Shown here piece by piece: positions 2,983 through 20,717 of a stretch of DNA of 64,000 nt (positions are counted from its first letter, which is position 1; the number at the start of each line of letters is the position of its first letter). The position numbers and the translations under genes were made by a program. The notes beneath the pieces were generated by a model that searched no databases, was not told the DNA's origin, and worked only from the letters and a program-made list of their open reading frames with translations. This DNA is from Candidatus Avelusimicrobium pullarium (lineage in GTDB: Bacteria > Elusimicrobiota > Elusimicrobia > Elusimicrobiales > Elusimicrobiaceae): the NCBI GenBank assembly GCA_944323745.1, contig CALUTQ010000001.1:672863-736862 (forward strand). Reading direction: 5' to 3'.

Positions 2983-3487
2983 TAATGGCAAGCAGAAAGA
3001 AATTGTATTAAAACGCAAATTAAGCGGTTTTACGCTTATAGAGCTTTTGGTGGTGGTACTGATTATCGGCATTTTGGCCGCGGTGGCTATTCCGCAGTAT
3101 CAAACGGCCGTAATGAAAGCCAAATTAATGAAATATATTCCGATGGCCGTTTCTTTTAAACAAGCCGAAGAACGTTATTATATGGCCAACGGCACGTATA
3201 CCGACAATACCACGCTGCTGGATATAACCGAACCGAATATGACAAGTTCGGGCTATATTCTTTTTGATGATGGCTGGTGGATTGACGTAATGGAATGGGG
3301 CTTGGATACGCCTTGCATTGTTATCGGCAGCAACAGCCCGCGCGGCGCCGTTAATCAAGAGGTTTCTTATAGAGTATATTTGGATAATATCCCTCCGTCC
3401 AGCCAATATGCCGCTTATAAAGGCAAGCACCATTGTTCCTATGCGGGCCAAATAGGCAAAAGGGTTTGCAAATCTATGGGCTTTTAA
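2963..3487 (+). CDS. Type IV pilin-like protein (prepilin)
   Basis: 174 residues. A long basic leader of about 22 residues ends in SG, followed by the processed N-terminus FTLIELLVVVLIIGILAAVA; this is the prepilin peptidase site with Glu at mature position 5, then the hydrophobic helix and PQYQTAV, as in major pilins and pseudopilins. The globular part has two Cys pairs' worth of cysteines and a C-terminal CKSMGF. After cleavage it would be assembled into a pilus or pseudopilus at the inner membrane. The only ATG before the leader is at 2963; no Shine-Dalgarno site is present. No other pilus assembly gene is adjacent; pilT lies at 61.1 kb. Confidence 0.88.
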   Translation: MSKIYQNNGKQKEIVLKRKLSGFTLIELLVVVLIIGILAAVAIPQYQTAVMKAKLMKYIPMAVSFKQAEERYYMANGTYTDNTTLLDITEPNMTSSGYILFDDGWWIDVMEWGLDTPCIVIGSNSPRGAVNQEVSYRVYLDNIPPSSQYAAYKGKHHCSYAGQIGKRVCKSMGF

Positions 3488-3490
3488 AAT

Positions 3491-3523
3491 AAAAACCCCG
3501 CGTTTTAGAACGCGGGGTTTTTT
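3491..3523. terminator. Bidirectional terminator between pilin and macroglobulin genes
   Basis: CCCCGCGTT (3496-3504) pairs with AACGCGGGG (3509-3517) with A's on the left and T's on the right, so it can serve both convergent genes. Confidence 0.9.
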
Positions 3524-3537
3524 ATGTTTCGGCAAGT

Positions 3538-6500
3538 TTAATTTTCAAGCGCTTGCACTTTAATTTGTGCGCTGTTCGTGTGTGCCGAGAACTGCGGCGC
3601 ATACATAGACTGCACTTGCGCCGGCAGCGCGTGATAGTCTCCGCCCAGCGTGGGGCGCAGGCTGTAGCGCAGCGTATAGGTGCCGGCGGGCACGCGGTCA
3701 AAGAAGAAGTTGGTGCTGGCGTCGCGGTTTTCGCGGTACACACTCAGTACGTCATAACTCCAGCCGCTTAACAGCTCGGTGCTTTCAAAGCCGGCCGGTT
3801 TGGGGTCGGTCAGCACCACATAGTCAAAAGCGGAAGAGGCGTCTATCGTCAGGCGCACTTCTATTTCGCTTCCTACGGGCAGTGCTTCTTCTGGCTGCAG
3901 AGGGCGCACTTTTTCTTTTCCGTTTTCGGTATATTTCAGCAGATACGCGCGCGTTACGTTAAGCACGCCCTTGGGGGAATTTTGTGCATTGGCCGTTGTA
4001 TAAACGGCGTCGAGCGTTACAAAGCCCGTCAGTCCGCCGCGTTTGGTAACGGTGGCGGTGTAGTATTGGCCGGGCACATTTTCGGCTTCTTGCGTCCAGG
4101 TCAGTTTGTCGCCCCATTCAAACGGCTCAAAGTGCAGGGTTTCTTTGGTGTCGCCCCATTTAAGCGTATATTCGGCGGGGTCGTCCAGCAAACCGTTGCG
4201 CTTCATATAATCAAGCAGGGCATAGACGGCGTCTGCCGTAGCGGTGGTAGCGTCCCATACTTGGGCGCGGCGGTTAAACAAGAGCCATTTGACCAGCTGC
4301 GCGGCTTTTTCCGTCGCTTCGGGGCGAATTTCCAAAAGCGTGCGCAGAGTGGCCGTTTGGGTGGCCAGGGTGTCGTTATACCACAGCCAGCTATGTGCCT
4401 CCGGCGCAAAATAAGCGCCGGTTACGGGATCCGTTTTCATTTGGGAAAGTACCACATCCATATAGTTCTGCGCTTTGGTGCCTTTGCCCAAGCGGTAATA
4501 GGCCGCGGCGGCATAGGTTTGCCCCAGCGGCGTCATATATTGGGCGTGCCGGTCGGCGTAGTCCAGCCAGTTTTGAACGGGAGCATTTTTAATTTCTGCC
4601 CAGCTTTGCGGGTAGGCCGTAAACACGTACGCAGCATATAAAGCGGCAGATACCGTATAGGCGGAGGCATCCGCTTCTTTTAAATTCTTTTCAATGCGCG
4701 GGGCCAGCCAGGCTAAAGCCTTTTTGGCGGCGGTTTGCGGTATATCTCCGCCGTAACGCAAAGCTTCGCTGTAAGCAGCCAGCAGGCGCAGGGTGATAAA
4801 CTCGCTGGGTTGACCGCCGGGCATCCAGCTGTAACCTCCGGAGGCCGTTTGATATTTGGCCAATTCTTTTTCGGCCTTGGCGCGGGCTTGTGCCACGGCG
4901 GAGGGATTAAACAAGTCTGTCAGGAAAGCTTCGCGTTCTTTGCCGCCCTGGGCTTCTTGCAGCCAGGGGGTTTCTTCCAGCAGCATCAGACGAGCGGGGT
5001 CTTGATTGTCCCAAGCCGGTTTTTGCCTGTCGCGTTTGGGCAGGGCGGCTACGGCGTCCTGCAGCATAGGATAGGTTTTGTAGAAACCGTTTACCACCGA
5101 AAGCGGAACATAGCGGTCGGCAATGCTCAGGGCGTCGTTGTGAACGGGTTTTAACAGCTGCGGCATAGCGTCAAACACGGAAAGCAAAAGCCCCGGGTCC
5201 ACCCGCAAGTTGACGGTGCTAACCTGACGGGTAGCGTCGGGTGTGAGCAGGTTTTCCAGCTTAAGCGTTTGGGTGCCGCTTTCCAGCGCGACCGTAACGC
5301 TTTCTGCCAGACGTTCTTTGGCCGGCAACAGCGGTAACTGGCGGCTTTCGGCATCGGTGTCGTCGCCGGCGCGCACGGTGGCGGTAATATCGGCCAGGGC
5401 AATTTCCTGCGGGACGTTAATGGCCCACGTTACTTCGGCCGTGCCGCCTGCCGGCACCGTGACGCTTTGGGTACGTTTTTCTATGCCAAAGCGCGCGGCG
5501 GCGTCTTTGCCGTCAATTAAAACGTCCAACGTTACTTCGCTGCTGCGTTTTTTGTCCGTCAGGTTTGTTACCTGTGCCACGATGGTGCTGGCGTCCCCTT
5601 CGCGCCAGAAACGCGGCAGGGCCAGACGCACCATTAAGTCCTTGCGGGTAACGGTTTGCGCGGTAAAAGCACCGAAATCGGCGTTTCGGGTCAGCGCAAA
5701 AGCAATGATGTTCCAAGCGGTCAAGCTTTGCGGCATCGTAAAAGACACCGTGCCTTTGCCGCCCGAAAGCGGCAGCATCGGGTTGAAATACGCCGTTTCG
5801 GAAAAGTCGCTTCGCGGCGTTTGCATATTGGCGGGCTCGGTGCCGCCGGCGACGCCTGCCTCTGCCGTGGCGGCGGTGTCAAAGGCCACTTCTTCTTCTG
5901 CCACGACGGCGTCGCGTGCCGCTCCATTGCTGGCTTGCAGGGCCATCACAGGCGCGGCGGCTTTCATCATCGTATTGCGTGCCATTGCGCCATAGGCCAA
6001 AAAGCGTTGCTGCAGGTTCAGCTGCGGCATAACGGGTGCTTGGGGCAATTGGGTTTGTTCGTCCTGCCGGTCAAACAAATAAGAGGCGTAGACGTCAAAG
6101 CCGCTGTCGGCAAGGCCGGCGCCCAAGCGCGGGGAAGGATACAAATCGTCTAACCCAAAAGCGCTTTTGTCGGACGAAACATAATAGTCCAGCGATTTGT
6201 CGTACACGCGCACGGAAGCCTGCCCCTGTACGGGGCCGCCGTTGGCGTTTGTAGCGCTGACGGCCCAGTTTACTTTTTGGCCGGGGCGTACTTCGTCCGG
6301 CACTTGGATATGCAGGGCCAATTCTTTATTGTCATAAGGAACATTTACAAAAGTTTGGGCGGTGTAAAAGCGGTAATCGCCCGCACCAAACCAGCGCAGA
6401 TAAACGCCGCCGCGCCAGCTGTTTTGGATAGGCAGGCTGTAAATGCCGGCGCCGGGGCCGACAATTTCGCGCGCGGCTAAAAACTCTCCGCCGTTGTACA

Positions 6501-17986: not shown

Positions 17987-19048
17987 ATGGCATTACAACA
18001 AAGAGTGATGGAAAAAATAGCCGCACTGAAAAATTTAATGAAACGGGACGGTTTTGACGGGCTCGTCATTACCAACAACATAGACCAGTTTTACATCCTC
18101 GGTTTCTATTTTTATCCGGCGGAAGCGGTGCTGCTTTTACAGGAAAGCGGCCTGATTTGCTTTACCCGCCAGCTGTATGTAGACCCTTTGACGCAGAAAT
18201 ATCCGTTTGTACAAATTGTAGGGCAGGATAAACAAATGGCCGCCGCCGCCGTAAAAGAAGCCGCCCGCTTGGGGCTTAAGCGCGTCGGGTTTGACGCTTC
18301 TAAAGAGAATTATATGGCGGGCAGCCTGTTTAAAGCCGCCGGCTTTGTCGAGGCGGACAGCTACGTCAGCCTGTTGCGTCAGGTAAAAGACGAATATGAA
18401 GTGGCCGCCTTGCGCGACAGCAACCGCATTGCTTATGAAACGTATGAATACATTAAACCGTTGCTTAAAACCGGCGTGAGCGAGTTTGAAGTAGCCGCCG
18501 AGATGGAAAAATTTATGCGCATCAAAGGCGCTTCTGCCACGTCGTTTTTAACCATTATTGCCTTTGGCGAAAATACGGCTAACCCCCACCACGAAACTTC
18601 TCACCGCAAACTGCAGGATAATGAGGCCGTGCTGATGGATTTCGGCTGTATTTACAACGGCTATTGCTCCGACATTACCCGCAGCTGGTGGCACGGCGAC
18701 AACGAGCCGGAAGAATATACCAAAATTTGGCATATTACGGACAAAGCCCGTCAGGCCGGCATCGCGGCCGAAAAACCGGGCGTGCCCGCCCAACAGGTGG
18801 ACGCAACGGCCCGCGGCATTATTACCGCCGCCGGCTACGGCCCCTATTTTACGCACCGGCTGGGCCACGGCGTAGGGTTGGAAATTCACGAAGAACCCTG
18901 CAACGACCAGACCACCAAAGCCGTGCTTAAAAAAGGCAACGTAATTACCGTAGAACCCGGCATTTATCTGCCCGGAAAATACGGCGTGCGGTTGGAAGAT
19001 ACCACCGTGGTTACCGAAACGGGGGCGGATATTTTAACCCGTAAATAA
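17987..19048 (+). CDS. M24 family Xaa-Pro aminopeptidase, first copy
   Basis: 353 residues from the ATG at 17987 with GAGGAG 9 nt upstream. An N-terminal creatinase-like domain (MKRDGFDGLVITNNIDQFYILGF) is followed by the pita-bread fold with the five metal ligands in MDFGCIYNGYCSDITRSW (two Asp), HRLGHGVGLEIHE (His), VEPGIY (Glu) and GVRLEDT (Glu). It removes the first residue from peptides with proline second, in the cytoplasm. It is followed 2 nt later by a paralog and then efp, a neighbourhood also known from Firmicutes (an M24 peptidase before efp). Confidence 0.92.
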   Translation: MALQQRVMEKIAALKNLMKRDGFDGLVITNNIDQFYILGFYFYPAEAVLLLQESGLICFTRQLYVDPLTQKYPFVQIVGQDKQMAAAAVKEAARLGLKRVGFDASKENYMAGSLFKAAGFVEADSYVSLLRQVKDEYEVAALRDSNRIAYETYEYIKPLLKTGVSEFEVAAEMEKFMRIKGASATSFLTIIAFGENTANPHHETSHRKLQDNEAVLMDFGCIYNGYCSDITRSWWHGDNEPEEYTKIWHITDKARQAGIAAEKPGVPAQQVDATARGIITAAGYGPYFTHRLGHGVGLEIHEEPCNDQTTKAVLKKGNVITVEPGIYLPGKYGVRLEDTTVVTETGADILTRK

Positions 19049-19050
19049 GT

Positions 19051-20103
19051 ATGAAAAACATAAGCGAACAACGCCTGAAAGACTTTCAGAAACTGCTTAA
19101 AGACGCCCGCCTGGACGGATATATTTGCTTGAGCGCGTTGGAACTGCGTTATTTTTCCGGCTTGGACTTGGAGGCGGAAGAAGCCGTCTTTTTGCTTACG
19201 CCGCGCAAAGCCTATTGCTTAACCAAAAAAATGATGGTGCCCAAAATAGCGGCGGCAAAGGCGTTTACCGTAAAAGCGGTGCCCGGGGATATGCTGGGGG
19301 CCGCGTTGGAATTGGCAGCCGCCAAAAAATGGACCCGCTTGGCCTTTGACCCCCAAAGCGCCGATTTTGTGCGCGGCGAAAAATTGGCTCAAGCCGGCTT
19401 AAGCCGTTTGGAAGGCGGCATGGCGGAAATGCGCAAAGCCAAATATGCCGATGAATTGGAGTTGATTAAAAAAGCCTGCCGCATCGCTTCGGCGGCGTTT
19501 GAAGAAGTAAAACCCCAAATCAAAACCGGTATGAGCGAAGAAGACGTACGCATTCTGATTGGCCTGGCTATGATGAAGCGCGGGGCGGATAGCATTCCGT
19601 TTAACATCGTCTGCTTTGGCGAAAATTGTGCCGATTGCCACCATACCCCTTCGGCCAAGCGCAAATTGAAAAAGAACGAAGCCGTATTAATGGATTTCGG
19701 TTGTTTTTATAAGGGCTATTGTTCGGATATGACCCGCAGCTGGTGGCACGGCGATAAAGAGCCGGCCGAATACAGCAAAATTTGGCATATTGTCGCTATG
19801 GCTAAAGAAGCCGCCGGCGGCCTGCTGCGTGCCGGCCTGCCCGTGGCAGCGGTGGACAAGGCCGCCCGTGACGTGATTGAAGACGCCGGCTACGGCCCCT
19901 ATTTTATCCATACCACCGGCCACGCCATCGGGCTGGAAGTGCACGAAGCCCCCATAGAGCGCGCCAATGCCATTGGCGAGCTGGAAGAAAATTACGTCGT
20001 TACCGTAGAACCCGGCATTTATCTGCCCGGCAAATACGGCGTGCGCTTGGAAGACAGCTTCCAAGTGACCAAAAACGGCAGCAAAAATTTGACGCAAAAT
20101 TAA
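19051..20103 (+). CDS. M24 family Xaa-Pro aminopeptidase, second copy
   Basis: 350 residues, a tandem paralog of the preceding gene with the same domain order and ligands: MDFGCFYKGYCSDMTRSW, HTTGHAIGLEVHE, VEPGIYLPGKYGVRLEDS. Compared with the first copy the N-terminal domain has diverged strongly (LSALELRYFSGLDLEAEEAVF), while the catalytic part remains close, suggesting a shift in substrate recognition or dimer contacts. The ATG follows the previous stop by 2 nt, so expression is coupled. A duplication followed by divergence is the simplest reading. Confidence 0.9.
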   Translation: MKNISEQRLKDFQKLLKDARLDGYICLSALELRYFSGLDLEAEEAVFLLTPRKAYCLTKKMMVPKIAAAKAFTVKAVPGDMLGAALELAAAKKWTRLAFDPQSADFVRGEKLAQAGLSRLEGGMAEMRKAKYADELELIKKACRIASAAFEEVKPQIKTGMSEEDVRILIGLAMMKRGADSIPFNIVCFGENCADCHHTPSAKRKLKKNEAVLMDFGCFYKGYCSDMTRSWWHGDKEPAEYSKIWHIVAMAKEAAGGLLRAGLPVAAVDKAARDVIEDAGYGPYFIHTTGHAIGLEVHEAPIERANAIGELEENYVVTVEPGIYLPGKYGVRLEDSFQVTKNGSKNLTQN

Positions 20104-20144
20104 CGGGCTTGCCGCAAGGCCGCCCGCAAAGAGGTACAAAAGTT

Positions 20145-20717
20145 ATGATTAACACCACTCAGTTTCACGACGGACTGATTTTTGAGGATGAGAACGGACA
20201 GATTGTGGAAATCGTAGAATTCCAACATCACCGCAAAAGCCAGGCCCGCGCCGTGGTGCGCGTAAAACTGCGCAATATTCACACCGGTTCTTTGATTGAA
20301 ACGGCCTACCGGCCCGAAGATAAATTTAAAGAAGTGGAAGTGGAAAAACGCCCGTTTACTTATTTGTATGACGAAGGCGATATGGCTGTGTTTATGAACA
20401 GCGAAAACTATGAGCAGGTATCCGTGCCCATAGAAAAACTCAAAGACCAGAAAAAATATTTGAAAGACAATATGGAAACGACGGGCATTTATATTAACGG
20501 GCAGTTGCTCAATATGGAATTGCCCATTAAAGTGCCCCTTACCGTGGCTTCCACCGTGCCGGGCGTAAAAGGCGATACCGTTGCCAATATGACCAAAATG
20601 GCCACCCTGGAAACGGGCGCCGAAATTAAAGTGCCGCTTTTTATTAACGAAGGCGACAAAATTTTGGTGGATACCCGCACCGGTTCTTATGTAGAACGCG
20701 TGGTGGAACCCAAATAA
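20145..20717 (+). CDS. efp: Translation elongation factor P with Gln at the modification site
   Basis: 190 residues, the normal EF-P length, with three beta domains and the typical FTYLYDEGDMAVFMNSENYEQ and VPGVKGDT blocks. EF-P rescues ribosomes stalled at proline runs. The loop that reaches the peptidyl-transferase centre reads HHRKSQARAVV; aligned without gaps to the usual HVKPGKGAAF loop, the modified Lys (or Arg) becomes Gln33, and the PG turn is lost. The ATG at 20145 fits the conserved N-terminus and follows an AGAGG site; an in-frame TTG-type start further upstream is not needed. The stop overlaps the next start (TAATG). Confidence 0.93.
   Translation: MINTTQFHDGLIFEDENGQIVEIVEFQHHRKSQARAVVRVKLRNIHTGSLIETAYRPEDKFKEVEVEKRPFTYLYDEGDMAVFMNSENYEQVSVPIEKLKDQKKYLKDNMETTGIYINGQLLNMELPIKVPLTVASTVPGVKGDTVANMTKMATLETGAEIKVPLFINEGDKILVDTRTGSYVERVVEPK

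What the first reader, a model, noticed from the sequence alone, without database searches (positions are those of the whole stretch)
20229..20262. EF-P with Gln in place of the modified lysine and no PG turn
Gapless alignment to the Bacillus-type loop HVKPGKGAAF puts Gln33 where Lys32 is expected; the loop reads HHRKSQARAV. EF-P activity usually depends on a modified Lys or Arg at the tip. This protein either works unmodified, carries an unknown modification on Gln or on the nearby Lys31, or has shifted function. No epmA/B/C or earP gene is seen in the window.
Basis: partly seen in the sequence, partly recalled or inferred. Interest (0 to 1): 0.65.

Follow-up and report, generated by a model that had tools for sequence, protein, structure and literature searches.

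The report
Gln-tip EF-P clade in Elusimicrobiota
This bacterium and a whole clade of its relatives make a translation-rescue factor (EF-P) whose working tip carries a conserved glutamine in place of the usual chemically modified lysine or arginine, so it must work without the known modifications or with one nobody has described.

Summary
The gene at window 20145-20717 is a full three-domain EF-P (TIGR00038 equivalog) and the only one found in its 1.6 Mb genome. Gapless alignment puts Gln33 where the modified Lys sits; Pro and both Gly of PGKG are gone. It is not a sequencing error. In 92 distinct relatives, Arg30, Ser32 and Gln33 never vary, although Ser32 uses both unrelated serine codon sets. 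All Gln-tip proteins form one clade (support 100/99) inside the phylum Elusimicrobiota, whose other families mostly keep KPGKG. Only the loop block was rewritten. Lys31 is Met in about a quarter of the clade, so it is a poor modification site. No genome tested has EpmA. A deoxyhypusine-synthase homologue looked like the missing modifier, because full-length copies occur only in the Gln clade. But many near-complete genomes lack it with an unchanged loop, and Met31 genomes keep it. Pro-Pro motifs are not depleted and ValS keeps PPP, so polyproline rescue is still needed. Best reading: an active EF-P with a rewritten Gln-tip loop that uses none of the known modifications. Gln at this site was already listed in surveys (0.3-0.6% of EF-Ps); I found no functional study of a natural Gln-tip EF-P.

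The parts
20145..20717 (+). efp, elongation factor P, 190 aa, ATG start, stop codon included
   Evidence: ORF and sequence; TIGR00038 above cut-off; PF08207, PF01132, PF09285; AlphaFold model mean pLDDT 85, best PDB match C. glutamicum EF-P 6s8z Z 20.6
20226..20255 (+). beta3-beta4 loop HHRKSQARAV (residues 28-37), replacing HxKPGKGxA
   Evidence: gapless alignment to 1yby; conservation in the clade; DSSP strands 20-28 and 38-44 flank it
20232..20234 (+). Arg30 codon, invariant in the Gln clade (Lys in the KPGKG relatives)
20235..20237 (+). Lys31 codon, at the Pro32 (E. coli) position; Met in 24% weighted of the clade
20238..20240 (+). Ser32 codon, invariant residue written in both AGY and TCN codons across the clade
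20241..20243 (+). Gln33 codon, at the position of the modified Lys/Arg; invariant in the clade
20130..20134 (+). AGAGG, probable ribosome binding site of efp
   Evidence: read; inference
17987..19048 (+). M24-like (Xaa-Pro type) peptidase, first of two upstream of efp
   Evidence: ORF; neighbour cluster 1; family name from sequence character, not scanned
19051..20103 (+). second M24-like (Xaa-Pro type) peptidase directly upstream of efp
   Evidence: ORF; neighbour cluster 1 kept next to efp in Gln and Lys types

Best explanation
This is the cell's only EF-P and it still relieves stalls at Pro-Pro motifs, using a loop that was rewritten once in the ancestor of a large Elusimicrobiota clade. Shown by sequence: one efp gene; an EF-P fold outside the loop; K-P-G-K-G-G replaced as a block by R-K/M-S-Q-A/S-R/A/K; Arg30, Ser32 and Gln33 under strict selection; no EpmA; Pro-Pro motifs kept. 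[quoted passage not shown] the actinobacterial type with a stiffened loop). Whether Gln33 is wholly unmodified is not shown.
For: Single EFP_N match in the genome. TIGR00038 above cut-off and all three domains. Gapless loop alignment. Gln clade monophyletic 100/99 in 100% of bootstrap trees, with KPGKG in most other families of the phylum. His29, Arg30, Ser32 and Gln33 at 100% in 92 distinct proteins (about 29 effective); positions separating Gln from Lys types lie almost all at residues 30-35, the rest being mild (54, 55, 68). Ser32 AGY 34 / TCN 64, Gln CAG 69 / CAA 29 in 98 genes: purifying selection on the residue. No genome of 67 over the GenX/EpmA cut-off, while two control genomes were over it. 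ValS PPP in all 27 genomes; PP observed/expected 0.93 (Gln) vs 0.97 (Lys), PPP 1.26 vs 1.31, not different. bL27 N-terminus of the same kind in most Gln and Lys types that could be read. Precedent for unmodified function: EfpL R33 shown unmodified by MS (PMC11611912).
Against: In E. coli EF-P, K34Q alone is inactive, as are P32S, G33S and G33A (PMC6544042), so this loop cannot work by the E. coli contacts. No biochemical data exist for any Gln-tip EF-P that I could find. EF-P backup factors (ABC-F in own genome) could carry polyproline rescue, so retained Pro-Pro motifs do not prove that EF-P is active. Strict invariance of a Ser-Gln pair could equally mark a recognition site for an unknown modifier. 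The EarP search is inconclusive (no control rang); EpmB and YmfI were not tested.
Confidence: 0.55

Rival explanations
1. Gln33 (or Ser32) carries a modification not yet described on EF-P, for example N5-methyl-Gln as on release factors RF1/RF2, or a group on Ser32, made by an enzyme outside the known EF-P pathways.
For: Arg30-Ser32-Gln33 is invariant, as expected of an enzyme recognition site; a Gln near the peptidyl transferase centre that is methylated by PrmC exists in RF1/2 (PMC8904536); PrmC is present in these genomes.
Against: No second full-length PrmC-like protein in Gln-type genomes compared with Lys-type ones; the RF motif GGQ is not present; no Gln-specific neighbour gene: the Lys-type family f12 already has the downstream genes of the Gln types.
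Confidence: 0.25
2. A deoxyhypusine synthase homologue adds an aminobutyl group to Lys31 of the loop, a bacterial parallel to eIF5A hypusination.
For: Full-length strong PF01916 matches (about 290-330 bits) occur only in Gln-clade genomes, including the window's own (G000:C1:247046-247927); the KPGKG genomes have none, apart from short matches of about 24 bits in some and a second type of about 145 bits in genus g51. The homologue keeps the SWGK stretch of the catalytic lysine (residue recalled from knowledge of human DHS).
Against: Nineteen Gln-type genomes in which the enzyme was not found or not listed as matched have had their loop read, and all keep HHRKSQ (G149, the others); ten of them are 95-100% complete, e.g. 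G149 100%, G152 99%. Met31 genomes keep the enzyme (G182, G179, G218, G223). The gene lies beside glyA, not efp. [quoted passage not shown] One shared gain in the clade's ancestor explains the overlap.
Confidence: 0.05
3. The protein has lost or shifted its polyproline function and other factors (ABC-F ATPases, YebC-type proteins) rescue Pro-Pro stalls.
For: The loop differs at the tip and turn residues found essential in E. coli EF-P (PMC6544042); at least one ABC-F protein is present in the own genome and most relatives.
Against: The loop is under strict selection; residues outside the loop stay EF-P-like; Pro-Pro motifs are not depleted and ValS PPP is kept; ABC-F numbers are not clearly higher in Gln types.
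Confidence: 0.15

Closest known systems
Bacterial EF-P of the canonical lysine type (KPGKG; E. coli K34, B. subtilis K32)
   Same: three-domain protein, loop of the same length, single gene, peptidase gene upstream in relatives; sister families in the same phylum have it
   Different: Gln for Lys, Lys/Met for Pro, Ser for Gly, Ala/Ser for Gly; no EpmA in the phylum sample
Gln-tip EF-P noted in surveys (0.3% in PMC2821294; 0.6% and never with Pro32 in PMC6544042)
   Same: Gln at the tip and no Pro two residues before
   Different: the surveys give percentages in the text I could read, not clade, loop consensus or function; here the clade, invariant residues, enzyme distribution and motif use are worked out
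EfpL (YeiP)
   Same: tip residue shown to work unmodified; no need for EarP or EpmA
   Different: longer loop with Arg at the tip, paralogue that mostly occurs beside a canonical EF-P; here the loop has normal length and there is no second EF-P
Actinobacterial EF-P (C. glutamicum, 6s8z)
   Same: best structural match (Z 20.6); said to act without modification (from my knowledge of Pinheiro et al. 2020, cited in PMC11611912; paper not held)
   Different: keeps PGKGP with Lys; here no Pro or Gly in the loop
aIF5A/eIF5A with deoxyhypusine synthase
   Same: a DHS homologue is present in most Gln-type genomes
   Different: no Lys at the tip; enzyme dispensable with the loop unchanged

Membership tests
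Elongation factor P (TIGR00038) | score over the curated equivalog cut-off | tested here: met
   214.5 bits against 185.8
Elongation factor P (TIGR00038) | KOW-like, OB and C-terminal domains in order | tested here: met
   PF08207 4-61, PF01132 69-121, PF09285 130-185; fold match to EF-P structures
Elongation factor P (TIGR00038) | relieves ribosome stalling at consecutive prolines | not testable with these tools
   only indirect support from motif use
Lysine-type EF-P activated by EpmA | Lys at the loop tip with Pro two residues before | tested here: not met
   Gln33, Lys31
Lysine-type EF-P activated by EpmA | EpmA in the genome | tested here: not met
   no match over cut-off in 67 genomes; the best own-genome match lies in a 528 aa frame, read as LysRS
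Arginine-type EF-P activated by EarP | Arg at the loop tip | tested here: not met
   Gln33
Arginine-type EF-P activated by EarP | EarP in the genome | tested here: inconclusive
   no match in 67 genomes but no control genome rang either
EfpL/YeiP | score over TIGR02178 cut-off; extended loop with Arg tip | tested here: not met
   106.8 bits against 264.05; loop of canonical length
Actinobacterial unmodified EF-P | PGKGP loop | tested here: not met
   loop is RKSQAR
Hypusine-type EF-P/IF5A | conserved loop Lys accompanied by deoxyhypusine synthase | tested here: not met
   Lys31 varies to Met; DHS not found in many Gln-type genomes with the loop unchanged

The most novel reading that the evidence does not exclude
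A third chemical solution for EF-P: either an unmodified Arg-x-Ser-Gln loop that speeds Pro-Pro bond formation with Gln at the CCA end, or a new modification of Gln33/Ser32, fixed in a whole bacterial clade.
Probability: 0.7. Interest if true: 0.65.

Novelty: new variant of a known kind. Interest (0 to 1): 0.5.

Why it matters
EF-P is usually taught as a factor whose modified Lys or Arg is its working end; in E. coli, changing the tip or turn residues kills it. A clade of bacteria, including gut and animal-associated lineages, has rewritten these residues together, kept the new ones without exception, and still encodes Pro-Pro motifs. That makes the question of what the loop tip must do directly testable with one cultured relative (E. 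minutum) and E. coli reporters, and it warns against predicting EF-P activity or its modifier from the presence of a DHS gene.

Tried and rejected
Second canonical efp in the genome: none. Sequencing error: rejected by 92 distinct relatives and codon switching. DHS as modifier of Lys31: attractive at first, rejected after the full-phylum search and loop reading. A duplicated PrmC as Gln methylase: no second full-length copy. A modifier gene next to efp: downstream genes changed before the loop did, since family f12 has KPGKG with the Gln-type neighbours. Co-change in the bL27 N-terminus: none seen in the sequences that could be read, apart from family f11; eight of 30 were not extracted by the script, the window's own among them. 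Depletion of Pro-Pro motifs: none, with low power for PPP (68 and 26 motifs) and a G+C difference between the groups. DNA pattern for HRKSQ across 341 genomes: too many chance hits to count by itself. Survey of Gln tips outside the phylum: not possible with the remaining caps; the relatives scan only reached Elusimicrobiota, Bacillota and one Desulfonauticus.

Full report
What is there. The ORF at window 20145-20717 (+) encodes a 190 aa EF-P. It passes the TIGR00038 equivalog cut-off (214.5 against 185.8 bits), has the KOW-like, OB and C-terminal domains in order, and an AlphaFold model (mean pLDDT 85) matches known EF-P structures best (C. glutamicum 6s8z, Z 20.6; E. coli on the ribosome 6enj, Z 16.2). 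The whole genome (1.62 Mb, two contigs) has one EFP_N match. The closest named relative of the protein is Candidatus Avelusimicrobium excrementipullorum (98%, L054), so the window is from Elusimicrobiota; G078 has the length I know for the Elusimicrobium minutum chromosome (1,643,562 bases).

The loop. The phmmer alignment to 1yby has no gap: FQHHRKSQARAVVR against FQHVKPGKGAAFVR. Gln33 (20241-20243) stands on the modified Lys, Lys31 on the Pro, Ser32 and Ala34 on the two Gly. The model puts residues 29-37 between strands 20-28 and 38-44, with Gln33 in the middle.

It is a clade character. I read the loop in 115 Gln-type loci (92 distinct proteins). His29, Arg30, Ser32 and Gln33 are 100% conserved; Lys31 is 76% Lys and 24% Met (weighted); residue 34 is Ala or Ser and residue 35 Arg, Ala or Lys. 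In 98 distinct genes Ser32 is written with AGY 34 times and TCN 64 times, and Gln33 with CAG 69 and CAA 29 times, so selection holds the residues. In a tree of 78 EF-Ps the Gln type is one clade (ultrafast bootstrap 100, SH-aLRT 99, 100% of bootstrap trees). It covers families f1, f2, f9, f10, f11, f13, f15 and most of f14. Other families mostly have FQHHKPGKGGAVMR. Sites that separate the two types are residues 30-35, and outside the loop only mild changes at 54, 55 and 68: the loop was rewritten as a block.

Known modifiers. No genome of 67 passes the EpmA/GenX cut-off, while two control genomes do; the one long match per genome is read as lysyl-tRNA synthetase from its frame length. EarP gave no match but no control rang, so that search is inconclusive; its substrate, an Arg tip, is absent anyway. 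EpmB and the B. subtilis YmfI route were not tested.

The DHS lead. PF01916 rings at about 290-330 bits in most Gln-clade genomes, the window's own included. The KPGKG genomes have no such match, only short ones of about 24 bits in some and a second type of about 145 bits in genus g51. This suggested hypusination of Lys31. It failed two checks. First, nineteen Gln-type genomes in which the enzyme was not found or not listed as matched still carry HHRKSQ (G149 read, the others); ten of them are 95-100% complete (G121, G127, G135, G140, G147, G148, G149, G150, G152, G155). Second, Met31 genomes keep the enzyme (G182, G179, G218, G223). The gene is beside glyA, not efp. [quoted passage not shown] I take the overlap as one gain in the clade's ancestor.

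Is the function kept? ValS keeps its PPP motif in all 27 genomes read. In about 321,000 residues of ten Gln-type genomes and 271,000 of ten Lys-type genomes, PP observed/expected is 0.93 and 0.97, and PPP 1.26 and 1.31; the differences are not significant. Power for PPP is low, and the two groups differ in G+C. ABC-F proteins are found in the own genome and most others and are not clearly more numerous in Gln types, so a backup cannot be excluded but has not visibly expanded.

Neighbourhood. An M24-like peptidase gene lies next to efp in both types (all but a few loci). Lys-type loci have accBC downstream; Gln-type loci mostly have a HAD-like protein and secreted proteins, but f12, still KPGKG, already has that arrangement, so these neighbours did not come with the loop.

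Compared with what is known. Gln at this site was recorded at 0.3% (PMC2821294) and 0.6%, never with Pro32 (PMC6544042), and again named in PMC11611912. In E. coli, K34Q, P32S and G33S are each inactive (PMC6544042). EfpL works with an unmodified Arg tip on a longer loop (PMC11611912). I found no functional study of a natural Gln-tip EF-P in the library; many subscription papers are not held. So this is an EF-P by every family test I could run, outside each of the known activation types, and a new variant of a known kind.

Verdict. That the protein works in polyproline rescue without the known modifications is my best inference (0.55); an unknown modification of Gln33 or Ser32 remains open (0.25).

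Noticed in passing
L166 (G001) 666-1220 and L163 (G169) 2995-3549: Two further families (f3, f8) of the same class have a different non-canonical EF-P loop, FQNHKMAAEEAVMR: Ala at the tip, no Pro or Gly, two Glu; a separate clade (100/100) and the only efp found in G001 and G169.
   Followed up: partly
L165 and L168 near 1070-1543; L172; L177; L179: Divergent second EF-P-like proteins with loops such as HTGGGKTGA, HAGGGRAGA or HKATAKMGS in G173, G174, G218, G331 and G187; the four included in the tree form their own clade. In G173 and G174 the paralogue lies about 6 kb from the Gln-type efp.
   Followed up: partly
G000:C1:246968-248050 (L218:8969-10051): Deoxyhypusine synthase homologue (360 aa) in the own genome, next to glyA; strong full-length matches occur only in the Gln-type clade of the phylum, with scattered absences in family f2 and elsewhere. 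Probably a homospermidine synthase (SpeY-like).
   Followed up: yes
L164 (G187) 2992-3546: Family f14 is mostly Gln-type, but genus g51 has a KPGKG EF-P that falls outside the Gln clade with f12; a replacement by transfer or a taxonomy question.
   Followed up: no
window 17987-20103: Two M24-like (Xaa-Pro type) peptidase genes in tandem directly upstream of efp; most relatives in other families have one.
   Followed up: partly
L134 (G180:C272): A second, KPGKG efp in G180 sits on a 3.2 kb contig and groups outside the phylum in the tree; probably contamination of that assembly.
   Followed up: no
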